The position numbers and the translations under genes were made by a program. Shown here piece after piece: positions 17,201 to 41,387 of a DNA stretch of 64,000 bases (its first letter is position 1; the number at the start of each line of letters is the position of its first letter). The notes below the pieces were generated by a model. The model was given only the letters and a program-made list of their open reading frames with translations. It did not search any database and was not told the DNA's origin. This DNA is from Neoarius graeffei (taxonomy: Eukaryota > Chordata > Actinopteri > Siluriformes > Ariidae): contig NC_083583.1 in the NCBI RefSeq assembly GCF_027579695.1, positions 18,316,257 through 18,380,256 on the forward strand, given 5' to 3'.

Positions 17201-20200
17201 GCAAACTCCGCACAGAAAGTCCCTCATTGGCCACGGGGCTCAAACCCGGACCTTCTTGCTGTGAGGCGACAGCGCTAACCACTACACCACCGTGCCGCCC
17301 ATGACCACAAATTATTTTTGTGAATAGTGTTCTATCTTTTTTTTTTTTGCAAATTCTACTGACCTTGATATCTCCCTCAATATTTTTCCTTACAATAAAT
17401 ATGTTTTATAGTAGTTGTTTGATGATAAATAAAAGGACATGGTTGAAGAGGTGATTGACAGATTAGGGTCGGGCTTGAAACGCGCTAGAAATCTAGCTTC
17501 ATGAACATGCATACATTTTCCAACATGGACCTGAAGCTCTTACTGACATTACAGCCCAGCAAACTTCATTTAACATCTTTGAAACTTTACAGATTTACAG
17601 TGTTGACAGTTCTATAGGAAAGCCATGTCTTGTTCTTTGGTTAACTTTTGGAACAGACCCTTAGTGGTGAATTCTTTGCAGTTTTTCTGGTATGTTGGTC
17701 ATTTCGATGTCTAAGTGAGCTTCTTACTATCCAAGATACCAACACAAGTGAATAAAATTATGGCATAAACCAAGACAGCCAAAATTAGCAAAATTTTAGA
17801 ACAATTTAACTACAGCAAGACCTCAGTGAGCACTCAGTGTAGCTATCCAAGTAAGGTTAGCCAGTCACTTTTTTTTTTAAACAAACTCCACCAACAGAGC
17901 AGCAAAAATAAATACAACCCCGATTCCAAAAAAGTTGGGACAAAGTACAAATTGTAAATAAAAACGGAATGCAATGATGTGGAAGTTTCAAAATTCCATA
18001 TTTTATTCAGAATAGAACATAGATGACATATCAAATGTTTAAACTGAGAAAATGTATCATTTAAAGAGAAAAATTAGGTGATTTTAAATTTCATGACAAC
18101 AACACATCTCAAAAAAGTTGGGACAAGGCCATGTTTACCACTGTGAGACATCCCCTTTTCTCTTTACAACAGTCTGTAAACGTCTGGGGACTGAGGAGAC
18201 AAGTTGCTCAAGTTTAGGGATAGGAATGTTAACCCATTCTTGTCTAATGTAGGATTCTAGTTGTTCAACTGTCTTAGATCTTTTTTGTCGTATCTTCCGT
18301 TTTATGATGCGCCAAATGTTTTCTATGGGTGAAAGATCTGGACTGCAGGCTGGCCAGTTCAGTACCTGGACCCTTCTTCTACGCAGCCATGATGCTGTAA
18401 TTGATGCAGTATGTGGTTTGGCATTGTCATGTTGGAAAACGCAAGGTCTTCCCTGAAAGAGACGTCGTCTGGATGGGAGCATATGTTGCTCTAGAACCTG
18501 GATATACCTTTCATTGATGGTGTCTTTCCAGATGTGTAAGCTGCCCATGCCACAGGCACTAATGCAACCCCATACCATCAGAGATGCAGGCTTCTGAACT
18601 GAGCGCTGATAACAACTTGGGTCGTCCTTCTCTTTAGTCCGAATGACACGGCGTCCCTGATTTCCATAAAGAACTTCAAATTTTGATTCGTCTGACCACA
18701 GAACAGTTTTCCACTTTGCCACAGTCCATTTTAAATGAGCCTTGGCCCAGAGAAGACATCTGCGCTTCTGGATTGTGTTTAGATACGGCTTCTTCTTTGA
18801 ACTATTTATTTATTATATTATTATTTATTTAACTATAGAGTTTTAGCTGGCAACGGCGGATGGCACGGTGAATTGTGTTCACAGATAATGTTCTCTGGAA
18901 ATATACCTGAGCCCATTTTGTGATTTCCAATACAGAAGCATGCCTGTATGTGATGCAGTGCCGTCTAAAGGCCAATTTATGCTGACAACCCAGTCCTCGC
19001 AGACGGCGCCGCAGATAGCATCTGCGTAGCCCCCCCCACCTTCGCAGACGCTCTGCGCGCACCTCCCAAAAATTGTGACCACCGCAGAAGCCTTGCAGAC
19101 AGCGTCGCAGACAAGAGGGCTCTGATTGGTCCACTCTACGTCCGCTGTACACGCACTTCCACTTCCCTACTTTCCCGGTTTGGTTTGTTTTCACGACCGC
19201 CATTTTAAAAACACGAGCGAAGATGGAGCAGCACGAAGAGCGGTTGATTGAGGAAGTGAGGAAGTACGTACATCTATACGACTCCAGTTCTAGTCATTAT
19301 AAGTAACCGGAGGATAAACACTCCACTAACCACACCCACCAACTACTCCTAGCGATTTCGCGACTTCGCGCCCCCTTGCGTTGTGGCGGTGAATAACATC
19401 GCGCCCGCCTATTACTCCCCGCTCAACGATAAATTACAACTGTCTGCGAAAAGCTATCTGCGAAAGCCTTGTCGCAAGAGCATGCAGAGGCCTTAAGGGC
19501 CCGAAGATCACGGCCGCCCAGTATGGTTTTCCGGCCTTGACCCTTACGCACAGAGATTCTTCCAGATTCTCTGAATCTTTTGATGATATTATGCACTGTA
19601 GATAATGATATGTTCAAACTCTTTGCAATTTTACACTGTCGAACTCCTTTCTGATATTGCTCCACTATTTGTTGGCGCAGAATTAGGGGGATTGGTGATC
19701 CTCTTCCCATCTTTACTTCTGAGAGCCGCTGCCACTCCAAGATGCTCTTTTTATACCCAGTCATGTTAATGACCTATTGCCAGTTGACCTAATGAGTTGC
19801 AATTTGGTCCTCCAGCTGTTCCTTTTTTGTACCTTTAACTTTTCCAGCCTCTTATTGCCCCTGTCCCAACTTTTTTGAGATGTGTTGCTGTCATGAAATT
19901 TCAAATGAGCCAATATTTGGCATGAAATTTCAAAATGTCTCACTTTTGACATTTGATATGTTGTCTATGTTCTATTGTGAATACAATATCAGTTTTTGAG
20001 ATTCGTAAATTATTGCATTCCGTTTTTATTTACAATTTGTACTTTGTCCCAACTTTTTTGGAATCGGGGTTGTAAATAAAATTCCTCAAACAAAATTGTG
20101 TTTAATGTAAATGTTGACTGCTGTTTTCAGTTTGTACCTTACTGTAACTACTTTTACTTACATTACTTTGATGGATATTGACAGCTCTCTACCAAATGGT

Positions 20201-23200: not shown

Positions 23201-26200
23201 AAATATCAGGATAAACACCAAATCGATATGACTACCTGGGCACTTCACAAAGATATTTTCAGTAGCTTTTGAATAAAACAATGCTAACCAGTAGCTTTCA
23301 CATCAGAAACAAGCTAACATTAGCCTGACTGTAATATCACAGTCACATGAAATATGCACTATGGTGTGTTACTGTAAACATAACCATCTTAGCGTTGTGG
23401 TTAATTTTTTTAACACAAATCAAATGTAAATCATCTCATCTCATCATCTGTAGCCACTTTATCCTGTTCTACAGGGTCACAGGCAAGCTGGAGCCTATCC
23501 CAGCTGACTATGGGCGAAAGGCGGGGTACACCCTGGACAAGTCACCAGGTCATCACAGGGCTGACACATAGACACAGACAACCATTCACATTCACGGTCA
23601 ATTTAGAGTCACCAGTTAACCTAACCTGCATGTCTTTGGACTGTGGGGGAAACTGGAGCACCCGGAGGAAACCCACACGGACACGGGGAGAACATGCAAA
23701 CTCCACACAGAAAGGCCCTCGCCGGCCACGGGGCTCGAACCCAGGACCTTCTTGCTGTGAGGCGACAGCGCTAACCACTACACCACCATGCCGCCAAATG
23801 TAAATCAAGCAGAGGTAATTAATTACATGTCAAGTAGAAATGTGTCTAACTCAGCATTGATTTGGAATCCTTTCAAGTGTTCACAAGTGAGACTTGTGGG
23901 GGGCTGCCCACAGTGTGTGCACAAGCAATGATTGACACTCCGTCAGACACTCCTCCTCGCTCTGATTGGTTGTTTTGAATCAGATGTAGTGGATTATTGC
24001 AAATGGCATTATGAGCACTAGGTGGATCCAGAGGAGCCTGATATTTTCACAGATTATCTGTTTTATGTTCTAATGTCAGGACATAGTGACAGTTTTAGAA
24101 AAAAAATAAAAAAAATAAGTGGTTTGATGCAGCACCACACAAAGCAGACTTACCTTTACCACCCTAAAGTGCTGCTGTTATTCCAAAAGTGTTATATTCC
24201 TCTTATTGTATACCCGACCGATTTGACAACAATCATACTTGTATATAGTTACATTTAAAGCTGTACCACCTTTCAGGTTTTTCAAGTTTAGGTCATAAAA
24301 AGAATTTTCCCCGACACCCAATTACTTTTGTTTAGTGGACTGAAAGCTACTGAATTCTAATCACAAACTTCCAATTTTATTAGTTTTTTTTTTAATAGAA
24401 CAATTAATCAATTTAGGGCCATGTGGCCCTAAATTCTCTGCTATTTTTTCTTGCTTCACCATGATGCAAAACAAGAGACTACGTCATGCATCACGTGGTG
24501 GCCTTTCTCTCCCCTGAAACAGAAGAGAAAAATGGAGGACATGAGTGTGAGAATGAAACGCGAAAGACCGACTACAGTAATGGAAAGCGAGAAGAAAAGA
24601 AGTTACGTTGTGAAGACAACATATCAAATGTTGAAACTGAGAAATTTTATTGTTTTTTGAAAATTTTTAGCAAAAAATGAAATTAAATAAAATAAAAAAT
24701 AAAGTGGTTTGATGCAACGCCACACAAAGCAGAGTTACCTTTACCACCCTAAAGTGCTGCTGTTATCCCAAAAATGTGATATTCCTCTTATACCCGAGCG
24801 ATTTGACAACAATCATACTTGTATATAGTTACATTTAAAGCTGTACCACCTTTCAGATTTTTCAAGTTTAGGTCATAAAAAGAATTTTCCCCGACACCCA
24901 ATTACTTTTGTTTAGTGGACCGAAAGCTACTGAATTCGAATCACAGACTTCCAATTTTATTAGTTTTTTTTTAAATAGAACAATTAATCAATTTAGGGCC
25001 AGGTGGCCCTAAATTCTCCACTATTTTTTCTTGCTTCACCGTGACGCAAAACAAGAGACTACGTCATGCATCACATGGTGGCCTTTCTCTCCCCTGAAAC
25101 AGAAGAGAAAAATGGAGGACGTGAGTGTGTGAATGAAATGTGAAAGACCAACTACAGTAACGGAAAGCGAGAAGAAAAGACATTATGTTACGAAGGAAAG
25201 GAAATGCAGGACCAAATTAATAAATATCAGTGGTCAGAGAGCACCTCAGTGTGATCAGCTGTTTGTTTAGTGACAGTATGATGTAACTGTCAGTGCACAG
25301 ACAAGGTAAACCCGCGCATGTGCACACGGACTTCCTCTGTCTGCTTGACTGCGCAAAACGAGCGATTTCATGCACATTATTTGCTAGGGAATCCCCTCAA
25401 ATTAAATAACTTCCCAGCCACAGAATGGCCTGGTTTTTTTTTTTTTTTCGATATTACAGAAATAAACATATATCACAATGACCAAATTTCAGAGGGAACT
25501 AAATTTCACCGATTTTATGAAATCGAAAGGCCATCTATATTTTATGTTATGGAATAAGTGTGAAAAAGTTAGTTCCTGTTATCACTTACATTATAGCAGC
25601 TATAAATAATCCTTCCCTTGCAAGACAGTTCTACTTTTTTTCTCTCTTGAAGTTAATTAGATGAAAACTCCAGCTTGTCGGGTTACTGGGAAGCTAGAAA
25701 GCCCTCCGTCCTGAAGAATTTTCTTCTCCTATGTACATAAGTTCCTGTGTAAGCTGTTACTATGGAACAAGCACAATATTATAAACCTTGAGGTTAGCAC
25801 TATTGTCAGAGGTTTTATTATAGAAAATGAATTAACACCTTCTGACCAATCAGACTGTGGTATAATTTTTGTTATTTTGTTAACATTAATGCTGAAGTAC
25901 CTGTTTATTAATGCACTACTGCAGTAAATAAGGGTAGTTAAGGGAACCTTAAAGTGTTACCAAAGTCATCATTTACTGTATGTCTGTGTTGTGTATCTTC
26001 ATTACAACATTTACATTTCTTGCCCATTGTGTAGCTGCTGGATAACCAATAAGACAGTGAGTTACATCACAGTGAATGGTTATTTGGGGCTGGTGTTACT
26101 CTTCAACACAGTGATCATGGTTATAATCATGCTGAAGTTATGGCAGTTAAAATGGCAAGGTGTCCAGACTGGGAACAGACTAAGAAGGCTGTGGAAAGAC

Positions 26201-26541
26201 TGGGCCTCTCTGCTGGGGATCAGCATGGTTTTGGGGCTCCCATGGGGACTGGCATTTAGCACCCATGGGCCTCTGAGTCTACCAGGGATTTACCTCTTTA
26301 CCACCCTAAATGCTTTTCAAGGTAAGTGTACCATAGTGGTAACTGTCCTCAACCTTGATTTGTTTCCACTTCCTCCAGTCATGGATTGCCTCTAATGTCT
26401 TTTAAGGAGTGGATGAACATGATGTGTTTTCATCTTCCAGGTGTTTTTGTGTTCCTGTGGTTCTTATCAATCATGTGCAAGTCAAAGTATGAGGAGAAGA
26501 ATTCAACAAAAAATTTCTCCATGAGTAATTTCAGCTCATGA
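1760..26541 (+). CDS. Adhesion G protein-coupled receptor, ADGRG-like (3' nine coding exons)
   Basis: Gene-level entry, partial at the 5' end. Coding exons: 1760-1885, 11896-12009, 12198-12243, 12449-12540, 12662-12780, 22206-22474, 22680-22770, 26035-26321, 26441-26541. All junctions are GT/AG and the phases chain without a break to 414 visible residues plus TGA. Residues 1-80 are the C-terminal part of a GAIN domain. Residues 81-126 hold a canonical GPS: C86, W89, W98, C103, C114, C116, then HL/SFFAVL with predicted autoproteolysis between L119 and S120, leaving a tethered agonist that starts at S120. The rest is a seven-helix bundle and a tail of about 20 residues. The TM3-start and ECL2 cysteines expected for a disulphide are present (AVCQC; CWITNK). 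Family knowledge: such receptors self-cleave at the GPS and signal through G proteins at the plasma membrane. The resemblance is to the GPR56/GPR97/GPR114 group. The paralogue cannot be fixed here. The N-terminal exons are missing from view. Confidence 0.9.
1886..2364 (+). other. AT-rich intron sequence, nothing recognised
   Basis: Start of the 10-kb GPCR intron. No repeat, ORF or RNA signature is recognised in this stretch. Confidence 0.5.
2365..2815 (+). mobile_element. L2-like LINE, 3' end
   Basis: Reading +, residues such as [28 protein letters not shown] and APKLWDSF match the C-terminal end of L2-clade reverse transcriptase proteins, with in-frame breaks. It is followed by AAAGGCGCTATATAAATG and a (TTA)n tail at 2770-2815, which is the normal L2 terminus. 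A G-run sits at 2691-2707. Confidence 0.7.
2816..3613 (+). other. Intron sequence without recognised features
   Basis: AT-rich. A short hairpin-prone block at 3565-3600 has CATGTGCTTT and AAGCTCCAT motifs. No gene evidence was seen. Confidence 0.4.
4066..4438 (+). mobile_element. tRNA-derived SINE with 13-bp target duplication
   Basis: Full length with A- and B-boxes, central domain and a (GGAT)n tail. Flanked by TTAATTTAACGTG at 4053-4065 and 4439-4451, a perfect duplication that indicates a fairly recent insertion. Confidence 0.92.
5178..5832. mobile_element. TTAA-flanked foldback element (Kolobok/piggyBac-type MITE)
   Basis: Two arms of about 230 bases (5178-5410 and 5600-5832) are inverted copies. 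They start TTAAAGTGCCATTCCACC and end GGTGGAATGGCACTTTAA. The TTAA ends are the target duplication type of Kolobok and piggyBac. The arms produce matching ORF shadows on opposite strands, which are not genes. Confidence 0.8.
6021..6329 (+). pseudogene. SAMD3-like multicopy fish gene, broken terminal exon
   Basis: An acceptor-like tttcag precedes 6021. The frame reads [20 protein letters not shown], then [20 protein letters not shown] and a stop (6243-6245, TAA where GAA would be expected), after which the same frame continues [16 protein letters not shown] to NKLLA and a second stop at 6327-6329. This C-terminal signature is recalled from fish proteins annotated as sterile-alpha-motif-domain 3-like, which are multicopy and likely transposon-borne. 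No upstream exons were recognised. Confidence 0.6.
6599..6865 (+). pseudogene. THAP-domain remnant of the Kolobok-like element
   Basis: ATG CCA opens MPHRCVAA, then IWTCFAR, an in-frame TGA after [18 protein letters not shown] (the C-x2-H zinc ligands) and GAVPTI, the canonical THAP C-terminal motif (AVPTIF-like). The second zinc cysteine is missing. The THAP domain is a DNA-binding zinc finger found in P, Kolobok and ISL2EU transposases. Confidence 0.7.
7341..7727 (+). mobile_element. tRNA-derived SINE with 12-bp target duplication
   Basis: Full-length copy with an (ATGAG)n tail, flanked by ACATGTAACTTG at 7329-7340 and 7728-7739. It is nested in the Kolobok-like element. Confidence 0.93.
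8589..8963 (+). mobile_element. tRNA-derived SINE with 11-bp target duplication
   Basis: Full-length copy flanked by GATCAGTACAT at 8578-8588 and 8964-8974. It has the same central domain and (ATGAG)n tail as the copy at 7341. Confidence 0.93.
9312..9973. mobile_element. Harbinger-like non-autonomous element
   Basis: Terminal inverted repeats GGGCCCGTCCACACGAGTA and TACTCGTGTGGACGGGCCC. The flanks TGA and TAA fit a decayed three-base T-N-A duplication. It contains a relic of the Myb/SANT-like gene of PIF/Harbinger elements. Confidence 0.65.
9582..9719 (+). pseudogene. Relic first exon of Harbinger Myb/SANT-like protein
   Basis: 45 codons from ATG to TGA with [19 protein letters not shown], the opening helix of the Myb/SANT-like DNA-binding protein of Harbinger elements. 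After about 29 residues the sequence is unrelated, so it is a captured 5' fragment and not a working gene. Confidence 0.6.
9974..10900. other. AT-rich right flank of the 7.3-kb unit
   Basis: Contains several TTAGTAAATATAAATAAA-like blocks (10570-10680) that echo 3640-3665 near the left end. No gene evidence. Confidence 0.4.
11090..11320 (+). mobile_element. Second SINE family, tRNA-like head
   Basis: The head GCAAGCTGGCCTAGTGGTTAG is followed by CTCTCAACCGGGAGATTGC, a tRNA-like fold. It is interrupted by a (TA)n tract at 11157-11200 and followed by a GC-richer body. Poorly preserved. Confidence 0.45.
11896..12009 (+). CDS. Adhesion GPCR exon b (GAIN subdomain B)
   Basis: Acceptor cacag, donor gtaaga, 38 codons, phase 0 at both ends. 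The motif VLGVWLG followed by [11 protein letters not shown] is the typical strand pair that precedes the GPS in ADGRG proteins. It joins in frame to exon a across a 10-kb intron filled with mobile elements. Confidence 0.85.
12198..12243 (+). CDS. Adhesion GPCR exon c (start of GPS)
   Basis: A short 46-nt exon encoding [15 protein letters not shown] plus one split base. C86 and W89 are the first two invariant GPS residues. Acceptor tttcag, donor gtcctg, which is a weak donor. The reading frame continues exactly into the next exon. Confidence 0.85.
12449..12540 (+). CDS. Adhesion GPCR exon d (GPS cleavage site)
   Basis: Encodes the rest of the GPS: HWSSDGC, then [13 protein letters not shown]. 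It supplies W98, C103, C114, C116 and the H118-L119/S120 cleavage triad. Acceptor cctcag, donor gtgagt. Serine in place of threonine at the new N-terminus is allowed in the family. Confidence 0.92.
12662..12780 (+). CDS. Adhesion GPCR exon e (TM1)
   Basis: Acceptor ggcag, donor gtatgt. It encodes a short linker ([15 protein letters not shown]) and a hydrophobic TM1 helix ([20 protein letters not shown]), ending in a split Arg codon that is completed at 22206. Confidence 0.9.
12986..13317 (-). mobile_element. tRNA-derived SINE, older divergent copy
   Basis: The right end is the inverted head (gcagcaccgtgccacctcc). The central domain is diverged and no duplication is visible, so this is older than the other SINE copies. 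Confidence 0.8.
13511..14503. mobile_element. PIF/Harbinger MITE with TAA target duplication
   Basis: Starts GGCTACATCCACACGACAAC and ends CCGTGTGGACAGGGCC. TAA at 13508-13510 and 14504-14506 is the three-base duplication of Harbinger. It has an internal (CT)n run at 14133-14158. No transposase remains. Confidence 0.7.
14560..16800 (+). mobile_element. Non-LTR retrotransposon with EEP endonuclease and partial RT
   Basis: Endonuclease block: [39 protein letters not shown] (catalytic D) and [11 protein letters not shown] (catalytic SDH). RT block: [16 protein letters not shown], then [11 protein letters not shown] with the YADD active site at about 15899-15910, and a C-terminal thumb/connector to about 16650. 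Stops and shifts break it (15095, 15278, 16063, 16198). The endonuclease-side product runs KKWWRIVS directly into GSVLGPLL near 15815, so the RT fingers are missing (internal deletion). The clade is Jockey/CR1/I-like and not resolved. Confidence 0.8.
16927..17301 (-). mobile_element. tRNA-derived SINE with 12-bp target duplication
   Basis: Flanked by TGACCACAAATT at 16915-16926 and 17302-17313. Full length, (CTCAT)n at the 3' tail side. Confidence 0.93.
17314..17912. other. Intron sequence, nothing recognised
   Basis: AT-rich sequence of the 9.4-kb GPCR intron between a SINE and a Tc1 element. A T-run lies at 17339-17348. No repeat or coding signature is recognised. Confidence 0.4.
18969..19493. 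mobile_element. PIF/Harbinger MITE nested in Tc1 copy A
   Basis: TAA at 18966-18968 and 19494-19496 flanks a block starting AGGCCAATTTATGC and ending GCATGCAGAGGCCT. Tc1 copy B lacks it at the equivalent site (about 61941), which proves the boundaries. Confidence 0.85.
19223..19306 (+). pseudogene. Relic MADF/Myb-like start of Harbinger protein 2
   Basis: 27 codons from [23 protein letters not shown], the first helix of a MADF-type domain, then a stop. This is the fragment expected from the DNA-binding partner gene of an autonomous Harbinger. Confidence 0.6.
20263..20440 (-). mobile_element. tRNA-derived SINE, truncated old copy
   Basis: Contains the inverted central domain (ttggactgtgggaggaaacc) and an inverted head (aaccactataccaatg). 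The 3' half is missing. Confidence 0.7.
20698..20898 (+). mobile_element. SINE of a second family, 5' part
   Basis: Head GGGGCAGCCATGGCCTGATAG with a B-box-like GGTTTGATTCCCG, then TGCCCTTGAGCAAGGCACC. The element continues at 21906 after a hAT insertion. Confidence 0.7.
20899..21905. mobile_element. hAT-type MITE with 8-bp target duplication
   Basis: Terminal repeats TAGGGTGCATCAGTTGCC and GGCAACTGATGCACCCTA. Direct repeat CTGCCCAC at 20891-20898 and 21906-21913. It splits a SINE and itself holds a younger SINE. Confidence 0.9.
21236..21605 (-). mobile_element. tRNA-derived SINE nested in the hAT MITE
   Basis: Flanked by TAAAACTCAAACT at 21223-21235 and 21606-21618. Full length. Confidence 0.92.
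21906..22035 (+). mobile_element. SINE of second family, 3' part
   Basis: Resumes with CTGCCCACTGCTCTGTG and ends TTTCAGATGGGTTAAATGCA, then a (CTT)n run at 22013-22033. The same tail occurs in the chimeric SINEs near 54.6 and 58.5 kb. Confidence 0.7.
22206..22474 (+). CDS. Adhesion GPCR exon f (TM2-TM3)
   Basis: Acceptor ccacag, donor gtaagt. It encodes TM2 ([20 protein letters not shown]), ECL1 with the conserved TM3 cysteine (AVCQC), TM3 with the family motif [20 protein letters not shown], and the start of ICL2. Confidence 0.93.
22680..22770 (+). CDS. Adhesion GPCR exon g (TM4, ECL2)
   Basis: Acceptor tgtag, donor gtaaga. It encodes TM4 ([13 protein letters not shown]) and the start of ECL2, with several Asn-X-Ser/Thr sequons (NYS, NET). 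Confidence 0.88.
23434..23795 (-). mobile_element. tRNA-derived SINE with 12-bp target duplication
   Basis: AAATGTAAATCA at 23422-23433 and 23796-23807 flanks a full-length copy. A short deletion removes part of the (TGTGAATG) region. Confidence 0.92.
24105..25545. mobile_element. TTAA-ended element with tandemly duplicated body
   Basis: The block from AAGTGGTTTGATGCA through CTCCCCTGAAACAGAAGAG occurs twice with a period of about 584 bases (24117 and 24703). The right end GAAAGGCCATCTATATTTTA and the left TTTAAAGCTGTACCACCTTT match the ends of the copy at 55716-56366. A fragment of a Tc1 internal repeat (24614-24672) lies at the duplication joint. Confidence 0.65.
26035..26321 (+). CDS. Adhesion GPCR exon h (ECL2, TM5-TM6)
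   Basis: Acceptor gtgtag, donor gtaagt. It opens with the conserved ECL2 Cys-Trp (CWI), followed by TM5, ICL3, TM6 with the family motif LGLPWGLAF, and the LNAFQG that precedes TM7. Confidence 0.93.
26441..26541 (+). CDS. Adhesion GPCR terminal exon (TM7, tail, stop)
   Basis: Acceptor ttccag. It encodes the TM7 stretch [11 protein letters not shown] and a Ser/Asn-rich tail ending SNFSS, then TGA at 26539-26541. The tail is short for the class, and the TM7-C-tail boundary resembles GPR56-type receptors. Confidence 0.9.
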
Positions 26542-27788: not shown

Positions 27789-28165
27789 CTCATCTCATTC
27801 TCATTATCTCTAGCCGCTTTATCCTTCTACAGGGTCGCAGGCAAGCTGGAGCCTATCCCAGCTGACTACGGGCGAAAGGCGGGGTACACCCTGGACAAGT
27901 CGCCAGGTCATCGCAGGGCTGACACATAGACACAGACAACCATTCACACTCACATTCACACCTACGGTCAATTTAGAGTCACCAGTTAACCTAACCTGCA
28001 TGTCTTTGGACTGTGGGGGAAACCGGAGCACCCGGAGGAAACCCACGCGGACACGGGGAGAACATGCAAACTCCACACAGAAAGGCCCTCGCCGGCCACA
28101 GGGCTCGAACCCGGACCTTCTTGCTGTGAAGCGACAGCGCTAACCACTACACCACTGTGCCGCCA
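27789..28165 (-). mobile_element. tRNA-derived SINE at the edge of the tandem array
   Basis: AATACAATAAT at 27778-27788 and 28166-28176 flanks it. The right duplication runs into the first array unit, so the SINE landed at the array border. Confidence 0.92.
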
Positions 28166-28386
28166 AATACAATAATAAATATAGCTGCAAGCAGCAATCC
28201 GGGGCCAAGCAGGGTGACCCAGCCTAAGTTGCCATGGCAACAGAAAGAACTGACCAGGCAGACGGTCATAGGCACGCACAGGAAGTGTTTACAAGCAGGA
28301 ATGTACCTCCAACCAGACGGTTAGAGGCATGCACGGCTTCACCGTCAAATTCGATTGACTGTGATGGCTGAAATTACTTCCAGTGT

Positions 28387-28417
<31 letters not shown>

Positions 28418-30039
28418 CTGTGCTAAAAGACTGCTGAGATATGAGCTCAATGATGTAAGAGCCAAAACACATTTTGGAAAGTTATAGCGCCCCCTAATGG
28501 CCAATGTGCACCAAATGTGGTATGGGCCATTTTGGAGGGGTGGTGCATAATCCCACCAAGTTTGGTTAAGAAAGGTCAAAGGGCTGCCGAGATATGAGCA
28601 CACTTCCTGTTTCGCGTCTGCACAGCCAAATTTGATTGGCAGCCACGGCCAAACGCTTATGAAATTCGAAAAACCGGGTAAGTTTTTAGTGCAGCTTAGT
28701 CCAAAGTTGCCATCTACCAAGTTTGGAAGGAATTGGTCAAAAATTGAGGGAGGAGAAGCATTTTAATTGATTTTCACAAAATTCAAAATGGCGGAAAATA
28801 TACCAGGCCGAATATGACGCCATAGGGTGCGTTGGATTCGGGTTGACCCAAGGATTCCAGCCATACTAAGATTTTGACGATCAGACATACGGTTCAAAAG
28901 TAACAAGCAGAAATGTACTTGCAACTTTGACCTGTTGTTGGCGCTAGAGAGTTTGAGATGCTGAGTTGAAATTTGCTGACAAGAACCGTGAGGCAGCCTA
29001 GAATCAGTGTGCCAAATTTGAAAACCTGTCGTCAGACGGTTCTATGGGTTTCCATAGAATTTCATTGATTTTAACAAAATTCAAAATGGCGGAAAATCCT
29101 CAAGGCAGAATATGACGTCATAGGGTGCGATAGATTCGACTTGACCCAAGGATTCCATAGGCAGTGGAATTTTGTTTCTAGCCAAAACGCATCATGAGAT
29201 ATGAGCCAAAAGACATTTTTCCTAGTTATAGCGCCCCCTAGCAGCCAATTTGTTCCAAATTTTTTGGGGTCCTTCATGGAGGGGTGTGGCATAAAGTCAC
29301 CAAGTTTCGTTAAGATACGCCAAAGGGCGGCCGAAATATGAGCACACTTCCTGTTTGGCGTCTGCGCCGCCAATTTTGATTGGCTGCCACGGCCAAACGC
29401 TTATGAACTTCTAAAAACCGGGTAAGTTTCTTGTGCAGCTTAGTCCACAGTTGCCATCTACCAAGTTTGGGAGAAATTGGTCCAAAATTGAGGGAGGAGA
29501 AGCATTTTAAGTGATTTTCACAAAATTCAAAATGGCGGGAAAACTATATGGGCGGAAAATGACGTCATGGGGTGCTTTGGATTCGTCTTGACCCAAGGAT
29601 TCCAGGGATACCAAGTTTTTGAAAATCGGACCAACGGTTCAAAAGTTACAAGCAGAAATGTACCTGCAACTTTGACCTGCTGGTGGCGCTAGAGGGTTGG
29701 GGCTGGGGACCTAAAAATTGTTGTGGGGAATGCTGAGACTGTCTCGAATGTGTGTGCCAAATTTGAGCATTTTCCTATGTGTGGTTCTATGGGCTGCCAT
29801 TGACTTCCCATAGGAGAAGAAAGTTGAATAAATATAGCTGCAAGCAGCAATGCGGGGCCAAGCAGTGTGACCCAGCCTAAGTTGCCATGGCAACAGAAAG
29901 AACTGACCAGGCAGACGGTCATAGGCACGCACAGGAAGTGTTTACAAGCAGAAATGTACCTCCAACCAGATGGTTAGAGGCATGAACGGCTTCACCGTCA
30001 AATTCGATTGACTGTGATGGTTGAAATTACTTCAAGTGT

Positions 30040-30071
<32 letters not shown>

Positions 30072-31479
30072 CTAAAAGACTGCTGAGATATGAGCTCAAT
30101 TAAATATGAGCCAAAACACATTTTGGAAAGTTATAGCGCCCCCTAATGGCCAAAGTGCACCAAATGTGGTATGGGCACTTATGGAGGGGTGGGGCATAAT
30201 CCCACCAAGTTTGGTTAAGAAAGATCAAAGGGCTGCCGAGATATGAGCACACGTCCTGTTTCGCGTCTGCACATCCAAGTTTGATTGGCAGCCACGGCCA
30301 AACGCTTAAGAAATTCGAAAAACCGGGTAAGTTTTTTGTGCAGCTTAGTGCAACGTTGCCATCTACCAAGTTTGGAAGGAATTGGTCAAAAATTGAGGGA
30401 GGACAAGCATTTTACTTGATTTTCACATAATTCAAAATGTCGGAAAATATACAAGGCGGAATATGACGGCATAGGATGCGTTGGATTCGTTTTGACCCAA
30501 GGATTCCAGCGATACACAGATTTTGACGATCAGACATACGGTTCAAAAGTAACAAGCAGAAATGTACATGCAACTTTGGCCTGTTGTTGGCGCTAGAGAG
30601 TTTGAGGTGGTGAGTTGAAATTTGCTGACAAGAACCTTGAGCCAGCCTATAATCAGTGTGCCAAATTTGAAAACCTGTCGTCAGACGGTTCTATGGGTTT
30701 CCATAGAATTTCATTGATTTTAACAAAATTCAAAATGGCGGAAAATCCTCAAGGCAGAATATGACGTCATAGGGTGCGCTAGATTCGTCTTGACCCAAGG
30801 ATTCCATAGGCAGTGGAATTTTGTTTCTAGCCAAAACGCATCATGAGATATGAGCCAAAAGACATTTTTCCTAGTTATAGCGCCCCCTAGCAGCCAATTT
30901 GTTCCAAATTCTTTGGGGTCCTTCATGGAGGGGTGGGGCATAATCCCACCAAGTTTCGTTAAGATACGCCAAAGGGCGGCCGAAATATGAGCACACTTCC
31001 TGTTTGGCGTCTGCGCCTCCAATTTTGATTGGCTGCCACGGCCAAACGCTTATGAAATTCTAAAAACCGGGTAAGTTTCTTGTGGAGCTTAGTCCAAAGT
31101 TGCCATCTACCAAGTTTGGGAGAAATTGGTCCAAAATTGAGGGAGGAGAAGCATTTTAATTGATTTTCACAAAATTCAAAATGGCGGGAAAACTATATGG
31201 GCGGAAAATGACGTCATGGGGTGCTTTGGATTCGTCTTGACCCAAGGATTCCAGGGATACCAAGTTTTTGAAAATCGGACCAACGGTTCAAAAGTTACAA
31301 GCAGAAATGTACCTGCAACTTTGACCTGCTGGTGGCGCTAGAGGGTTGGGGGTGGGGACCTAAAAATTGTTGTGGGGAATGCTGAGACTGTCTCGAATGT
31401 GTGTGCCAAATTTGAGCATTTTCCTATGTGTGGTTCTATGGGCTGCCATTGACATCCCATAGGAGAAGAAAGTTGAATA

Positions 31480-31560
31480 ATAATAATAATAATAATAATA
31501 AGAAAACCGACAAACTCATTAGGGGCCTTCGCCAGCTTCGCTGCTTGGCCCCTAATAAAT
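31480..31560. repeat. Unit terminus: (TAA)n plus inverted copy of the unit head
   Basis: (TAA)n, then AGGGGCCTTCGCCAGC and GCTGCTTGGCCCCTAAT. CTGCTTGGCCCC is the reverse complement of GGGGCCAAGCAG in the unit head. The same terminus occurs at 34855-34950 and 37326-37420 and is absent after units 1 and 3. Confidence 0.85.
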
Positions 31561-34500
31561 ATAGCTGCAAGCAGCAATGCGGGGCCAAGCAGTGTGACCC
31601 AGCCTAAGTTGCCATGGCAACAGAAAGAACTGACCAGGCAGACGGTCATAGGCACGCACAGGAAGTGTTTACAAGCAGAAATGTACCTCCAACCAGATGG
31701 TTAGAGGCATGCACGGCTTCACCGTCAAATTCGATTGACTGTGATGGCTGAAATTACTTCAAGTGTACTAGGTGTGTGTGTGCGTGTGTGTGTGTGTGCT
31801 AAAAGACTGCTGAGATATGAGCTCAATTATATATGAGCCAAAACACATTTTGGAAAGTTATAGCGCCCCCTAATGGCCAAAGTGCACCAAATGTGGTATG
31901 GGCACTTATGGAGGGGTGGGGCATAATCCCACCAAGTTTGGTTAAGAAAGATCAAAGGGCTGCCGAGAAATGAGCACACGTCCTGTTTCGCGTCTGCACA
32001 TCCAAGTTTGATTGGCAGCGACGGCCAAACGCTTAGGAAATTCTAAAAACCGGGTAAGTTTTTTGTGCAGCTTAGTGCAACGTTGCCATCTACCAAGTTT
32101 GGAAGGAATTGGTCAAAAATTGAGGGAGGAGAAGCATTTTAATTGATTTTCACATAATTCAAAATGGCGGAAAATATACAAGGCGGAATATGACGGCATA
32201 GGATGCATTGGATTCGGGTTGACCCAAGGATTCCAGCGATACACAGATTTTGACGATCAGACATACGTTTCAAAAGTAACAAGCAGAAATGTACATGCAA
32301 CTTTGGCCTGTTGTTGGCGCTAGAGAGTTTGAGGTGGTGAGTTGAAATTTGCTGACAAGAACCTTGAGCCAGCCTAGAATCAGTGTGCCAAATTTGAAAA
32401 CCTGTCGTCAGACGGTTCTATGGGTTTCCATAGAATTTCATTGATTTTAACAAAATTCAAAATGGCGGAAAATCCTCAAGGCAGAATATGACGTCATAGG
32501 GTCCGATAGATTCGTCTTGACCCAAGGATTCCATAGGCAGTGGAATTTTGTTTCTAGCCAAAACGCATCATGAGATATGAGCCAAAAGACATTTTTCCTA
32601 GTTATAGCGCCCCCTAGCAGCCAATATGTTCCAAATTCTTTGGGGTCCTTCATGGAGGGGTGGGGCATAAACCCACCAAGTTTCGTTAAGATACGCCAAA
32701 GGCCGGCCGAAATATGAGCACACTTCCTGTTTGGCGTCTGCGCCTCCAATTTTGATTGGCTGCCACGGCCAAACGCTTATGAAATTCTAAAAACCGGGTA
32801 AGTTTCTTGTGGAGCTTAGTCCAAAGTTGCCATCTACCAAGTTTGGGAGAAATTGGTCCAAAATTGAGGGAGGAGAAGCATTTTAATTGATTTTCACAAA
32901 ATTCAAAATGGCGGGAAAACTATATGGGCGGAAAATGACGTCATGGGGTGCTTTGGATTCGTCTTGACCCAAGGATTCCAGGGATACCAAGTTTTTGAAA
33001 ATCGGACCAACGGTTCAAAAGTTACAAGCAGAAATGTACCTGCAACTTTGACCTGCTGGTGGCGCTAGAGGGTTGGGGGTGGGGACCTAAAAATTGTTGT
33101 GGGGAATGCTGAGACTGTCTAGAATGTGTGTGCCAAATTTGAGCATTTTCCTATGTGTGGTTCTATGGGCTGCCATTGACATCCCATAGGAGAAGAAAGT
33201 TGAATAATAAATATAGCTGCAAGCAGCAATGCGGGGCCAAGCAGTGTGACCCAGCCTAAGTTGCCATGGCAACAGAAAGAACTGACCAGGCAGACGGTCA
33301 TAGGCACGCACAGGAAGTGTTTACAAGCAGAAATGTACCTCCAACCAGATGGTTAGAGGCATGAACGGCTTCACCGTCAAATTCGATTGACTGTGATGGT
33401 TGAAATTACTTCAAGTGTACTAGGTGTGTGTGTGTGTGTGTGTGTGTGCTAAAAGACTGCTGAGATATGAGCTCAATTAAATATGAGCCAAAACACATTT
33501 TGGAAAGTTATAGCGCCCCCTAATGGCCAAAGTGCACCAAATGTGGTATGGGCACTTATGGAGGGGTGGGGCATAATCCCACCAAGTTTGGTTAAGAAAG
33601 ATCAAAGGGCTGCCGAGATATGAGCACACGTCCTGTTTCGCGTCTGCACATCCAAGTTTGATTGGCAGCCACGGCCAAACGCTTAAGAAATTCGAAAAAC
33701 CGGGTAAGTTTTTTGTGCAGCTTAGTGCAACGTTGCCATCTACCAAGTTTGGAAGGAATTGGTCAAAAATTGAGGGAGGACAAGCATTTTACTTGATTTT
33801 CACATAATTCAAAATGTCGGAAAATATACAAGGCGGAATATGACGGCATAGGATGCGTTGGATTCGTTTTGACCCAAGGATTCCAGCGATACACAGATTT
33901 TGACGATCAGACATACGGTTCAAAAGTAACAAGCAGAAATGTACATGCAACTTTGGCCTGTTGTTGGCGCTAGAGAGTTTGAGGTGGTGAGTTGAAATTT
34001 GCTGACAAGAACCTTGAGCCAGCCTATAATCAGTGTGCCAAATTTGAAAACCTGTCGTCAGACGGTTCTATGGGTTTCCATAGAATTTCATTGATTTTAA
34101 CAAAATTCAAAATGGCGGAAAATCCTCAAGGCAGAATATGACGTCATAGGGTGCGCTAGATTCGTCTTGACCCAAGGATTCCATAGGCAGTAGAATTTTG
34201 TTTCTAGCCAAAACGCATCATGAGATATGAGCCAAAAGACATTTTTCCTAGTTATAGCGCCCCCTAGCAGCCAATTTGTTCCAAATTCTTTCGGGTCCTT
34301 CATGGAGGGGTGGGGCATAATCCCACCAAGTTTCGTTAAGATACGCCAAAGGGCGGCCGAAATATGAGCACACTTCCTGTTTGGCGTCTGCGCCTCCAAT
34401 TTTGATTGGCTGCCACGGCCAAACGCTTATGAAATTCTAAAAACCGGGTAAGTTTCTTGTGGAGCTTAGTCCAAAGTTGCCATCTACCAAGTTTGGGAGA

Positions 34501-34850
34501 AATTGGTCCAAAATTGAGGGAGGAGAAGCATTTTAATTGATTTTCACAAAATTCAAAATGGCGGGAAAACTATATGGGCGGAAAATGACGTCATGGGGTG
34601 CTTTGGATTCGTCTTGACCCAAGGATTCCAGGGATACCAAGTTTTTGAAAATCGGACCAACGGTTCAAAAGTTACAAGCAGAAATGTACCTGCAACTTTG
34701 ACCTGCTGGTGGCGCTAGAGGGTTGGGGGTGGGGACCTAAAAATTGTTGTGGGGAATGCTGAGACTGTCTCGAATGTGTGTGCCAAATTTGAGCATTTTC
34801 CTATGTGTGGTTCTATGGGCTGCCATTGACATCCCATAGGAGAAGAAAGT

Positions 34851-34881
<31 letters not shown>

Positions 34882-36439
34882 GAAAACCGACAAACTCATT
34901 AGGGGCCTTCGCCAGCTTCGCTGCTTGGCCCCTAATAATAATAATAATAAATATAGCTGCAAGCAGCAATGCGGGGCCAAGCAGCGTGACCCAGCCTAAG
35001 TTGCCATGGCAACAGAAAGAACTGACCAGGCAGACGATCAGAGGCACGCACAGGAAGTGTTTACAAGCAGAAATGTACCTCCAACCAGATGGGTAGAGGC
35101 ATGCACGGCGTCACCATCAAAATCGATTGACTGTGATGCCTGAAATTACTTCAAGTGTACTAGGTGTGTGTGTGTGCTAAGAGACTGCTGAGATATGAGC
35201 TCAATGATATATGATCCTAAATACATTTTGGAAAGTTATAGCGCCCCCTAATGGCCAATGTGCACCAAATGTGGTATGGGACCTTTTGGAGGGGTGGGGC
35301 ATAATCCCACCAAGTTTGGTTAAGAAAGGTCAAAGGGCTGCCGAGATATGACCACACTTCCTGTTTCACATCTGCACGGCCAAATTTGATTGGCCGCCAC
35401 GGCCAAACGCTTATGAAATTCGAAAAACCGGGTAAGTTTTATGTGCAGCTTAGTCCAAAGTTGCCATGTACCAAGCTTGGAAGGAATTGGTCAAAGATTG
35501 AGGGAGGAGAAGCATTTTAATTGATTTTCACAAAATTCAAAATGGCGGAAAATATACCAGGCGGAATATGACGCCATAGGGTGCGTTGGATTCGTGTTGA
35601 CCCAAGGATCCCATAGATACTTAGATTTTGACGATCAGAAGTACAGTTCAAAAGTAACAAGCAGAAATGTACCTGCAACTTTGACCTGTTGGTGGCGCTA
35701 GACAGTTTGAGATGATGAGTTGAAATTTGCTGACAAGAACCTTGAGGCAGCCTAGAATCAGTGTGCCAAATTTGAAAACCTCTACTCAGACAGTTCTATG
35801 GGTTGCCATAGAATTTCATTGATTTTAACAAAATTCAAAATGGCGGAAAATCCTCAAGGCAGAATATGACGTCATAGGGTCCGATAGATTCGTCTTGACC
35901 CAAGGATTCCAGAGATAGTGGAATTTTGTTTCTACCCCAAACGCATCATGAGATATGAGCCAAAAGTCATTTTTCCTAGTTATAGCGCCCCCTAGCAGCC
36001 AATTTGTTCCAATTTTTTTGTGTTCCTTCATGCAGGGGTGGGGCATAATCTCACCAAGTTTCGTTAAGATACGCCAAAGGGCGGCCGAAATATGAGCACA
36101 CTTCCTGTTTGGCGTCTGCGCAGCCAAATTTGATTGGCTGCCACGGCCAAACGCTTATGAAATTCTAAAATCCGGGTAAGTTTCTTGTGCAGCTTAGTCC
36201 CCAGTTGCCATCTACCAAGTTTGGGAGAAATTTGTCAAAAATTGAGGGAGGAGAAGCATTTTAAGTGATTTTCACAAAATTCAAAATGGCGGGAAAACTA
36301 TATGGGCGGAAAATGACGCCATGGGGTGCTTTGGATTCGTCTTGACCTAAGGATTCCAGGGATACCAAGTTTTTGAAAATCGGACCAACGGTTCAAAAGT
36401 TACAAGCAGAAATGTACCTGCAACTTTGACCTGCTGGTG

Positions 36440-37188
36440 GCGCTAGACAGTTTGAGATGATGAGTTGAAATTTGCTGACAAGAACCTTGAGGCAGCCTAG
36501 AATCAGTGTGCCAAATTTGAAAACCTCTACTCAGACAGTTCTATGGGTTGCCATAGAATTTCATTGATTTTAACAAAATTCAAAATGGCGGAAAATCCTC
36601 AAGGCAGAATATGACGTCATAGGGTCCGATAGATTCGTCTTGACCCAAGGATTCCAGAGATAGTGGAATTTTGTTTCTACCCCAAACGCATCATGAGATA
36701 TGAGCCAAAAGTCATTTTTCCTAGTTATAGCGCCCCCTAGCAGCCAATTTGTTCCAATTTTTTTGTGTTCCTTCATGCAGGGGTGGGGCATAATCTCACC
36801 AAGTTTCGTTAAGATACGCCAAAGGGCGGCCGAAATATGAGCACACTTCCTGTTTGGCGTCTGCGCAGCCAAATTTGATTGGCTGCCACGGCCAAACGCT
36901 TATGAAATTCTAAAATCCGGGTAAGTTTCTTGTGCAGCTTAGTCCCCAGTTGCCATCTACCAAGTTTGGGAGAAATTTGTCAAAAATTGAGGGAGGAGAA
37001 GCATTTTAAGTGATTTTCACAAAATTCAAAATGGCGGGAAAACTATATGGGCGGAAAATGACGTCATGGGGTGCTTTGGATTCGTCTTGACCTAAGGATT
37101 CCAGGGATACCAAGTTTTTGAAAATCGGACCAACGGTTCAAAAGTTACAAGCAGAAATGTACCTGCAACTTTGACCTGCTGGTGGCGC
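36440..37188. repeat. Extra B half in the last array unit
   Basis: 36440-37188 repeats 35695-36440 with only a few differences (period 745). The last unit therefore reads A-B-B, a product of unequal exchange. Confidence 0.85.
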
Positions 37189-37323
37189 TAGAGGGTTGGG
37201 GGTCGGGACCTAAAAATTGTTATGGGGAATGCTGAGACTGTCTCAAATGTGTGTGCCAAATTTGAGCATTTTCCTATGTGTGGCTCTATGGGCTGCCATT
37301 GACTTCCCATAGGAGAAGAAAGA

Positions 37324-37354
<31 letters not shown>

Positions 37355-37420
37355 GAAAACCGACAAACTCATTAGGGGCCTTCGCCAGCTTCGCTGCTTG
37401 GCCCCTAATAATAATAATAA

Positions 37421-37580
37421 TACAACCCCAATTCCAAAAAAAGTTGGGATGCTGTGTAAACTGTAAATAAAAACAGAATGCAATAATTTGCAAATCATGG
37501 AAACCTGATATTTCATTGAAAATAGTACAAAGACAACATATCAAATGTTGAAACTGAGAAATTTTATTGTTTTTTGAAAA
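37421..37580 (+). mobile_element. Solo end of a Tc1 element
   Basis: TACAACCCCAATTCCAAAA and the following 150 bases match the end of a Tc1 family related to copies A and B. No other end or transposase follows. Confidence 0.75.
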
Positions 37581-38193: not shown

Positions 38194-39790
38194 GCACCCT
38201 CCACAATTATTGGCACCCCTCGTTAAGATATGTTCTTAGGCTTCTAATAAATTCTTTTTTTTAATAATATAGGACAACAATGCAAAGAAAGAGAAAAATC
38301 CAACCTTTAATTCAAGTGCATTTATTCAGTGGGAAAAAAAATCCCACATTAAGAAATAATTCTTTTACATGAAATCATGTATGCCACAATTATTGGCACC
38401 CCTGATGTTAATACTTTCTACAACTCCCTTTTGCCAACAAGACAGCACTTAATACTCTCCTATAACATTTCAAAAGATGGGAGAATACAGAGAGAGAGGG
38501 ATATTCAACCATTCCTCTTTGCACAATCTCTCTAAATCATCCAGAGTCCTGGGTCCTCTCCTATGCACTCTCCTCTTCAGCTCACCCCACAGGTTTTCAA
38601 CTGGGTTGAGGTCTGGGGACTGAGATGGCCATGGGAGGAGCTTGATTTTGTGTCTGGTGAACCATTTTTGTGTAGATTTGGCCACATGTTTAGGGTCATT
38701 ATCTTGCTGAAAGACCCAGTGACGACCCATCTTCAGCTTTCAGGCAGAGGCCACCAGATTTTGATTTAAAATGTCCTGGTATTTCAAAGAGTTCATGATG
38801 CCATGCACCCTAACAAGGTTCCCGGGGCCTTTAGAAGAGAAACAGGCCCACAGCATCACCGATCCTCCCCCATACTTCACAGTGGGCATGAGGTGCTTTT
38901 CCGCATACTCATCTTTTGTGATGTATTAGAGTGTTTGTTGCCAAAAAGCTCTATCTTGGTCTCCTCTGACCAAAGCATACGGTCCCAGTTGAAGTTCCAG
39001 TACCACTTAGCAAACTCCAGACATTTACGTTTATGCTTGTAAATGAGAAAAGGCTTTTTCTGTGCATGCCTCCCAAACAGCTTGTTGGCATATAAATAGC
39101 GCCTGATGGTTGTTATGGAGACTTTGTGACCCCAAGATGCTACTCTTTGATGCAATTCTCTAACAGTGAGCTTTGGAGAACTTTTTACTTCTCTTACCAT
39201 CCTCCTCACTGTGCGTGGTGGCAAGATAAACTTGCATCCTTGTCCAGGCTTGTTTGCCACTGTTCCAGTTGTTTTAAACTTCTTGATGATTCCTCTGGCT
39301 GTAGATATGGGCAGGTGTAGGCGAGTGGCTATTTTCTTGTAGCCATTGCCTGACTTATGAAGGTCGACACACATCTGCCTTACTTGAATGGTGTGTTCTC
39401 TTGTCTTTCCTGTGTTGAAGAATGGATAAGAGAAATAGGCTTCTGTGTCACATTATATTTATACCCCAGGGAAACAGGATGTGATGAATTACTAATTAAA
39501 GGTTCCTAGATACTCCTGATCAACTTTATAAACTACAGTAGAAATGACAGAAATGCTTCAATTACATTTATTTTTTAGGAATTGTTATAAGTGCCAATAA
39601 TTGTGGAACAGGTGATTTTATGAAAAATAATTATTTCTTAGTCAGAGATGTTTTTTTTAAATTCACTTGAGTTAAGGGTTACATTTTTCTACAATTTTCA
39701 GTGTGAGATTATGCTTCTGCAATAAAAATTGAATTTATTTTAAGGCTTTTAACACATCTTAACCAGGGGTGCCAATAATTGTGGAGGGCG

Positions 39791-40287: not shown

Positions 40288-40477
40288 ATGCCTAGTTGTT
40301 GTGTTGTCGGGTGTCAGAATCGTAGCAGTGATGGGGTTAAAATGTACAGAATTCCAGCAAGATCTCACCCATTCCAAAAAAATCGCCGACGTCTATGACT
40401 ACAAGCCATCAAACGTGTAGACTGGGATGAAAGCACTATCAAAAATGCGCGGGTTTGCAGCGCCCACTTCATCACAG
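40288..40477 (+). pseudogene. THAP domain exon 1 with stop at a conserved Trp
   Basis: MPSCCVVGCQNRSSDGVKMY (zinc ligands C4 or C5 and C9), then a TGA at 40396-40398 where THAP domains have Trp, and VCSAHFITG with the C-x2-H ligands. The donor gtaaga follows. One base change inactivates an otherwise canonical domain. Confidence 0.85.
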
Positions 40478-41177: not shown

Positions 41178-41387
41178 ATGGCTACGGCTAGTGAACAGCG
41201 CGTGTTTGACTCCGCTTTGGAATCAGTTTTAGAAGAATTAGACTTGGAGTTTTGGTTGAAACATGAGCAGGAAGAGGCTCTCCGCTCATTCCTTTTCAAG
41301 AAGGACGTTTTCGCTGTTTTGCCGACCGGCTATGGCAAAAGTCTGATCTACCAGCTAGCTCCGCTGGTAGCCAAAAGGATGGGCTAG
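41178..41387 (+). pseudogene. RecQ-like helicase N-terminal fragment
   Basis: 69 codons: LDLEFWLKHEQEEALRSF (Q-motif region), then KDVFAVLPTGYGKSLIYQLA with Walker A GYGKS. It ends at TAG after AKRMG. RecQ-like genes with this start are multicopy in fish genomes and thought to ride on transposons. Only the first motif is present, so it is a fragment. Confidence 0.7.

What the first reader, a model, noticed from the sequence alone, without database searches (positions are those of the whole stretch)
28177..37420. Array carries 11 evenly phased CTCF-like cores, all in one orientation
GCGCCCCCT starts at 28487, 29231, 30136, 30880, 31863, 32607, 33513, 34257, 35241, 35985 and 36730. On the minus strand the two versions read TGGCCATTAGGGGGCGC and TGGCTGCTAGGGGGCGC, close to the recalled CTCF consensus TGGCCACCAGGGGGCGC. 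All point the same way, with spacings of 744-745 and 905-984. A 9-kb array of same-direction CTCF-like sites between two genes could act as a domain boundary. The motif match is seen; binding is inference.
Basis: partly seen in the sequence, partly recalled or inferred. Interest (0 to 1): 0.72.

Follow-up and report, generated by a model that had tools for sequence, protein, structure and literature searches.

The report
Mobile tandem repeat carrying CTCF-like boxes
The array is five head-to-tail copies of a repeat found thousands of times in this (probably fish) genome; each unit carries sequences resembling the binding site of the chromosome-folding protein CTCF, on both strands rather than all one way, and nothing here shows that this array is a boundary.

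Summary
All 11 GCGCCCCCT cores are at the stated coordinates, and a CTCF matrix recalled from memory scores them far above controls. But "all in one orientation" is wrong: the matrix also finds 11 plus-strand sites, 7 of them scoring above the weaker minus-strand class.

The phasing is tandem duplication. The array is five copies of a 1.65-2.5 kb composite element: head, (GT)n, two or three ~745-bp monomers, and in three copies (AAT)n plus a 54-bp hairpin tail. Copies 2 and 4 are 99.88% identical. The family is genome-wide: 6,893 exact TAGGGGGCGCTATAAC cores, reversed control 0. Its anatomy resembles non-autonomous Helentrons (HINEs) carrying satellite repeats.

Both boxes evolve slowly. AGTTATAGCGCCCCCTA has the fewest changes of 644 windows of 17 bp, and ranks 4th, six tied, in loci from five other chromosomes. 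Yet CTCF position 5, the motif's key cytosine, is the most changeable base of the minus box: constraint is real but not CTCF-shaped there.

The five A-type sites probably can bind CTCF (inference). A dedicated boundary at this locus is unsupported.

The parts
28177..29829 (+). Element copy 1 (head + A monomer + B monomer; no tail)
   Evidence: Heads at 28180, 29833, 31560, 33212, 34952, each preceded by AAA; 92.7-96.5% identical to copies 2-5
29830..31556 (+). Element copy 2 (head + A + B + AAT tract + tail)
   Evidence: 99.88% identical to copy 4 over 1725 aligned bases
31557..33208 (+). Element copy 3 (head + A + B; no tail)
33209..34948 (+). Element copy 4 (head + A + B + AAT tract + tail)
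34949..37420 (+). Element copy 5 (head + A + a mosaic monomer with B-like front and A-like rear + B + AAT tract + tail)
   Evidence: mosaic seen (family D1 groups 35908 with B copies, family D5 groups 36305 with A copies)
28177..28422 (+). Head: palindrome GCTGC-AA-GCAGC, subterminal inverted repeat GGGGCCAAGCAG, then a (GT)n tract; further heads start at 29830, 31557, 33209, 34949
31500..31553 (+). 54-bp tail with stem-loop and CTGCTTGGCCCC, beside AAT repeats; also 34880-34933 and 37353-37406
   Evidence: folded (-21.8 kcal/mol with RNA, -12.1 with DNA parameters)
28485..28503 (-). A-type CTCF-like site TGGCCATTAGGGGGCGCTA; also 30134-30152, 31861-31879, 33511-33529, 35239-35257
   Evidence: Matrix score 22.08, p 2.2e-8 each
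29229..29247 (-). B-type CTCF-like site TGGCTGCTAGGGGGCGCTA; also 30878-30896, 32605-32623, 34255-34273, 35983-36001, 36728-36746
   Evidence: Score 16.29, p 1.2e-6 each; T at the near-invariant C of matrix position 5
29673..29691 (+). Plus-strand CTCF-like site TGACCTGCTGGTGGCGCTA; also 31322-31340, 33049-33067, 34699-34717, 36427-36445, 37172-37190, and the variant at 35682-35700
28928..28946 (+). Weaker plus-strand sites in four A monomers; also 30577-30595, 32304-32322, 33954-33972
   Evidence: Scores 10.17 (one) and 11.40 (three)
28480..28496 (+). 17-bp slow-evolving block AGTTATAGCGCCCCCTA, first copy; one per monomer
   Evidence: 11 inferred changes against a window mean of 52.5, rank 1 of 644 in 151 monomers; 4 against 25.9, rank 4 with six tied, in a separate set of 46

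Best explanation
The array is five tandem copies of a high-copy mobile element whose core is a ~745-bp satellite-like monomer. By anatomy it is closest to a non-autonomous Helentron (HINE).

Shown: the unit structure, the genome-wide copy number, near-identical copies on several chromosomes, and, in nearly every monomer sampled, a slow-evolving CTCF-like box on each strand.

Inferred: the element spreads by rolling-circle-type transposition and grows into arrays through that process and through unequal exchange at its AAT tracts, which would also add or remove tails. The CTCF-like boxes are fixed parts of the monomer, so arrays of the family carry regularly spaced sites on both strands.

The five A-type sites (CA at the methylation-sensitive position, so no CpG there) probably can bind CTCF. 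The B-type and plus-strand sites are weaker candidates. If bound, the array would be a two-way, multi-site obstacle to cohesin rather than a one-way anchor. A selected boundary role at this locus is not supported.
For: Element structure. Genome-wide copies: head motif 1459 + 984 at up to 2 mismatches, reversed control 0; A-type core 488 + 715 exact, control 0; TAGGGGGCGCTATAAC 2625 + 4268 exact, control 0. Recent spread: the 219-bp head query had 1309 first-look candidates, 40 were scored, and all 40 (the window's own copy included) are 100% identical, on 16 contigs. Copies whose A monomer matches copy 1 at about 100% and B at about 99% lie on C3, C4, C5, C18, C22 and elsewhere on C15, beside differing neighbours. 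Tail gain and loss: of 97 heads, 51 follow a monomer end with no tail, 43 follow a tail, 1 a different tail, 2 have other left flanks. Sites on both strands: in 140 sampled monomers the minus box scores 10 or more in 140 and 16 or more in 132, the plus box 10 or more in 139, 12 or more in 112 and 16 or more in 102. Slow evolution of both boxes. The CTCF core motif is reported almost identical in lamprey, chicken and human, and repeat-borne CTCF sites are reported in lamprey (PMC5504073, passages) and, by footprinting, zebrafish (PMC9341505, passages).
Against: No ChIP-seq, methylation or Hi-C data were available. The Helentron reading rests on anatomy alone: no autonomous partner or clean insertion site was found, and the right-end inverted repeat lies inside the hairpin instead of before it. 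The matrix was recalled from memory. CTCF position 5 is the most changeable base of the minus box, so even A-type binding is a prediction. Conservation does not correlate with CTCF information content at either box (Spearman -0.02, p 0.92, and -0.06, p 0.82). The plus box is only rank 33 of 642 in the full set and rank 30 of 642 in the separate set.
Confidence: 0.72

Rival explanations
1. One reading: a 9-kb, single-orientation CTCF array between two genes that works as a domain boundary.
For: Strong minus-strand matches. The array lies between an adhesion-GPCR-like exon (25928-26392) and a THAP-coding stretch near 40.3 kb.
Against: Plus-strand sites are as numerous. Copies of the family occur on many contigs, on C1 in large clusters. 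The 6 B-type sites lack the key C. No occupancy data.
Confidence: 0.1
2. The conserved box serves the element and is recognised by a factor other than CTCF (a transposition protein, a GC-box factor or another zinc finger). The CTCF likeness is a by-product of the shared GGNGGCGCTA core.
For: The near-invariant block AGTTATAGCGCCCCCTA runs 5 bases past the CTCF motif, while CTCF positions 5-7 split between subfamilies. Position 5 took 6 of 24 and 7 of 15 changes in the minus site.
Against: The plus box keeps C at positions 4 and 5 in 137 and 140 of 140 monomers and is also slow-evolving. The CpGs of both boxes are among the slowest of 21, as binding by a methylation-sensitive factor such as CTCF would also predict.
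Confidence: 0.4
3. The slow evolution is not selection but low mutation or sequence homogenisation in these stretches, and the array is inert satellite-like DNA.
For: Monomers in arrays are clearly homogenised (copies 2 and 4 are 99.88% identical). The 17-bp block is only rank 6 of 644 without A-type monomers and rank 4 with six tied in the separate set; other CpGs outside the boxes are as slow as theirs (positions 228, 366 and 249).
Against: Homogenisation should act on whole stretches, not on two short boxes. The same two boxes are slow in two separate sets of loci.
Confidence: 0.2

Closest known systems
HINE: non-autonomous Helentrons carrying satellite-like central repeats (Crassostrea gigas Cg_HINE, PMC7492417; passages seen)
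   Same: Left module with subterminal inverted repeat and microsatellite, central tandem repeats, ~60-bp right module with palindrome; the paper also says of Helitrons that tandem whole elements often have inner copies truncated at the 3' end.
   Different: Monomers are ~745 bp; AAT tracts flank the tail; the inverted repeat lies within the 3' hairpin arm; insertion site and autonomous partner unproven.
Transposon families that spread CTCF sites (hAT-Tip100 repeat in lamprey, PMC5504073; SINE3-1a and HATN9_DR in zebrafish, PMC9341505; passages seen)
   Same: A dispersed repeat with a CTCF-grade motif inside it.
   Different: Here two boxes of opposite orientation per monomer sit in tandem arrays, and occupancy is unknown.
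CTCF-binding macrosatellites (D4Z4, PMC2639723; tRNA repeat at 1q23.3, PMC4041453; DXZ4, PMC6985041; search listing with abstract starts only)
   Same: Large tandem repeats described there as CTCF-dependent insulators or boundaries.
   Different: Those are named loci studied for CTCF or boundary function; this is a dispersed, probably mobile family with motif evidence only.

Membership tests
HINE / non-autonomous Helentron | Subterminal inverted repeats in left and right modules | tested here: met
   96 of 97 heads hold GGGGCCAAGCAG with at most 1 mismatch; the tails listed hold its complement CTGCTTGGCCCC or close variants
HINE / non-autonomous Helentron | Short complementary IR beside the left inverted repeat | tested here: inconclusive
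   GCTGC-AA-GCAGC precedes the repeat and could pair with part of it; spacing and extent not matched to the published layout
HINE / non-autonomous Helentron | Microsatellite in the left module | tested here: met
   A GT- or CA-type dinucleotide run of five or more units lies within 420 nt after 69 of 97 heads; 28 lack one
HINE / non-autonomous Helentron | Central satellite-like tandem repeats | tested here: met
   ~745-bp monomers in variable number
HINE / non-autonomous Helentron | About 60-bp right module with inverted repeat followed by a palindrome | tested here: inconclusive
   The 54-bp tail folds into one hairpin, but the inverted repeat is in the hairpin arm, not before it
HINE / non-autonomous Helentron | No target-site duplication; insertion between T and T (the latter recalled) | not tested
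   Only 2 of 97 heads have a left flank that is not an array unit or a tail; the window edges are obscured by AAT repeats and neighbouring repeats
HINE / non-autonomous Helentron | Autonomous Rep/helicase partner | not tested
   Four requests for PF14214 did not complete
CTCF binding site | Matrix score well above background | tested here: met
   5 sites at 22.08, 13 at 16.3-17.6, 4 at 10.2-11.4, recalled matrix; permuted-matrix control
CTCF binding site | C at motif position C2 (matrix position 5, my mapping) | tested here: inconclusive
   Met in the 5 A-type and the 11 plus sites of the window; not met in the 6 B-type sites
CTCF binding site | Conservation shaped like the motif | tested here: not met
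   Spearman -0.02 (minus box) and -0.06 (plus box); position 5 most changeable in the minus box
CTCF binding site | Occupancy in cells | not testable with these tools
   No ChIP-seq or footprint data
CTCF domain boundary | Single orientation as claimed | tested here: not met
   11 minus and 11 plus sites
CTCF domain boundary | Insulation in contact maps | not testable with these tools
   No Hi-C data

The most novel reading that the evidence does not exclude
A satellite-bearing mobile element has spread thousands of paired, opposite-facing CTCF-grade sites through a vertebrate genome. The boxes are kept because binding benefits the element, for example by keeping it unmethylated or by stalling cohesin. 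Each array would then act as a two-way, copy-number-tunable loop barrier, including within large array clusters.
Probability: 0.18. Interest if true: 0.75.

Novelty: new member of a known kind. Interest (0 to 1): 0.42.

Why it matters
If A-type boxes are bound, this family could have rewired where CTCF sits across a whole fish genome, and its arrays would give a natural series of few to many sites in both orientations for testing how copy number and direction affect cohesin stalling. If they are not bound, a high-scoring motif repeated thousands of times yet unoccupied would be a useful negative control, and the question becomes which factor holds the 17-bp block constant.

Tried and rejected
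First conservation test (140 monomers): the matches used to cut monomers had to start within 60 bp of the monomer start, and the box lies at 45-68, which favours monomers with a conserved box. I redid it with a query starting 110 bp into the monomer, beyond the minus box, and repeated that on loci from five other chromosomes. The plus box lies inside the matched query in all versions. Monomers cut by a locus end or holding N were dropped. Some loci had been picked from the A-core list, so one search also gives a subset without 8 such loci and one without A-type monomers; ranks fell in some subsets and are given in the report. The within-subfamily CpG figures (2 of 288 changed in the minus box, 3 of 276 in the plus box, 359 of 4509 elsewhere) come from the first, biased sample.

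Idea that versions A (CA) and B (TG) are the two decay products of one ancestral CpG at CTCF positions 5-6: attractive, but the root state is tied (CA, CG and TG all cost 7), so not claimed.

Sequence-string searches of the paper library: (head string) gave 1 paper, (tail string) none, (six strings) four; by title and abstract start all five are unrelated mammalian studies. Topic searches listed 25 of 163, 20 of 21, 12 of 28, 12 of 81, 2 of 2 and 12 of 158 papers; no listed title or abstract start describes this family, which is not proof of absence.

IMG/VR scan with the head motif: 1 locus, whose 9.6 kb gave no alignment to the window at E 1e-3; taken as a chance match. Rfam: no match at gathering threshold in the window.

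Genome-wide baseline for a general CTCF consensus, the count of TGGCCGCTAGGGGGCGCTA, and the Helitron family PF14214: not completed. The tail pattern was also unanswered and not asked again.

Long inserts between family units in fetched loci proved to be runs of N and were left alone.
Full report
What was checked. The 11 stated cores are all present, with a twelfth at 19368 outside the array. A 19-bp CTCF matrix that I recalled from memory gives 22.08 for the five TGGCCATTAGGGGGCGCTA sites (A-type) and 16.29 for the six TGGCTGCTAGGGGGCGCTA sites (B-type); the maximum is 29.36. Fifty Markov controls of the array gave on average 0.1 sites above 14, with a best single score of 19.4. Outside the array the window has 17 sites above 8, one of them above 16 (16.45 at 16844). 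To remove the effect of copy number I tested one unit, 29833-31559: 1 of 5000 column-permuted matrices reached its best score and none of 5000 gave three sites of 16 or more. For the A monomer alone 0 of 5000 reached the best score and 9 of 5000 gave as many sites of 16 or more; for the B monomer alone the numbers are 8 and 0. The CTCF likeness is therefore more than chance.

The same matrix finds a plus-strand site in each of the 11 monomers: six TGACCTGCTGGTGGCGCTA at 17.56, one variant at 16.58, and four weaker ones at 10.2-11.4. The array is not one-directional. Each monomer has a minus site and then, 443-444 bp on, a plus site. The next minus site starts 301 bp after that within an element and 461-540 bp after it across element junctions (positions).

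What the array is. Repeat analysis shows 11 copies of a ~745-bp monomer, alternating between A and B versions that are 68-77% identical over the 300-base stretches compared; in copy 5 the middle monomer is a mosaic with a B-like front and an A-like rear. They are grouped into five elements that each begin AAATATAGCTGCAAGCAGC. Three elements end in a 54-bp hairpin tail beside AAT tracts, and two lack it. Copies 2 and 4 are 99.88% identical, and copy 5 is 91.8-92.7% identical to the rest. The 744/905/983 spacing comes directly from this layout.

How common it is. The head occurs 1459 + 984 times at up to two mismatches, the A-type core 488 + 715 times exactly, and TAGGGGGCGCTATAAC 2625 + 4268 times exactly; each reversed control was 0. 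A 219-bp head query had 1309 first-look candidates; the 40 that were scored, the window's own copy included, were all 100% identical and lie on 16 contigs. Of six further heads fetched from that list, all six lie next to other family units. I fetched 31 stretches by region, 20 of them from C1.

How it probably moves. Among 97 heads in the window and fetched loci, 51 follow a monomer end with no tail, 43 follow a tail, 1 a different tail, and 2 (L010 and the window's first copy) have other left flanks. Of 81 tails with enough sequence after them, 43 are followed by a head, 30 by another tail and 8 by neither within 75 bases; 6 of these 8 show long AAT-type tracts and 2 (L010 and the window) leave the family. 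Subterminal inverted repeats are present in 96 of 97 heads and a GT- or CA-type microsatellite after 69 of 97. Published HINE elements share this layout, and tandem Helitrons are said often to be truncated at the 3' end of inner copies (PMC7492417, passages). Insertion without target-site duplication and an autonomous partner were not tested. I therefore call it HINE-like, not a HINE.

Is the box under constraint? In 151 monomers cut with a query that starts beyond the minus box, AGTTATAGCGCCCCCTA has 11 inferred changes against a window mean of 52.5, rank 1 of 644. The plus 19-mer has 26 against 58.7, rank 33 of 642 (six tied); the full minus 19-mer has 24, rank 25 (five tied). Without A-type monomers (n 95) the ranks of the block, the plus 19-mer and the minus 19-mer are 6, 4 and 74. 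Without 8 loci that stood on the A-core list (n 111) they are 1, 1 (five tied) and 69. In 46 monomers from C4, C7, C18, C20 and C22 the values are 4 against 25.9 (rank 4, six tied), 9 against 29.0 (rank 30) and 15 against 29.0 (rank 76). The CpGs of the minus and plus boxes took 2 and 3 changes in the first set, within the three slowest of 21, and 1 and 0 in the second, within the four slowest of 21; a few CpGs outside the boxes are equally slow.

Is the constraint that of CTCF? Only in part. At the minus box, matrix position 5 took 6 of 24 and 7 of 15 changes. I map it to the cytosine called C2, whose motif-strand methylation plays the dominant part in inhibiting CTCF binding (PMC10325916, passages). 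The constrained block also runs five bases beyond the motif (from the first sample of 140 monomers). Conservation and CTCF information content do not correlate at either box (Spearman -0.02 and -0.06). The plus box keeps C at positions 4 and 5 in 137 and 140 of 140 monomers but has T at position 9 in all 140, where the recalled matrix prefers A. A-type sites have CA at C2; that paper describes such a motif as making a hydrophobic contact with zinc finger 7. B-type sites have TG there and lose the cytosine.

Gene context. An adhesion-GPCR-like exon lies at 25928-26392 (Pfam 7tm_2 E 3e-9; best solved chain ADGRG2, E 3.9e-15), although longer read-through frames did not recover the Pfam match. 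To the right are a THAP domain at about 40297-40470 (E 1e-10) and a RecQ/DEAD-like fragment in the ORF at 41034 (Pfam E 1.8e-5, just below the curated cut-off; best solved-structure E 0.0036, RECQ5). So "between two genes" is plausible, but gene models were not built.

Verdict. Real motif, wrong orientation claim, ordinary origin for the phasing. The interesting residue is a dispersed satellite-bearing element with two slow-evolving, CTCF-grade boxes per monomer. Occupancy and boundary activity are open and need experiments.

Noticed in passing
27790-28165: Dispersed repeat, probably a tRNA-derived SINE in reverse orientation (recalled), with further copies in the window. The flanks read GAATACAATAAT and AAATACAATAAT, which fits a target-site duplication.
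   Followed up: partly
37421-37580: Another dispersed repeat starting TACAACCCC abuts the array's right edge; further copies start near 17916, 20071, 60916 and 62518.
   Followed up: partly
L015:2100-2160: A different tail-like sequence ending TCGGGCCCTAATAAA lies directly before a head, suggesting a second related element family with its own hairpin end.
   Followed up: no
G000 C1, places listed (capped lists, C1 only): All but one of the heads listed are on the plus strand and all but one of the cores on the minus strand, so arrays on C1 share one orientation; many lie between 89.7 and 93.3 Mb.
   Followed up: no
18135-18806, 38880-39452, 47152-47613, 61138-61818: Tc1/mariner-type transposase remnants by Pfam (DDE_3, HTH_Tnp_Tc3_2).
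   Followed up: no
L019:1775-2091, L026:200-500: Runs of five tails in a row separated mostly by AAT-type tracts, with no monomers between them.
   Followed up: partly
40297-40470 and 41265-41378: THAP domain and RecQ/DEAD-like fragment on the plus strand right of the array.
   Followed up: partly
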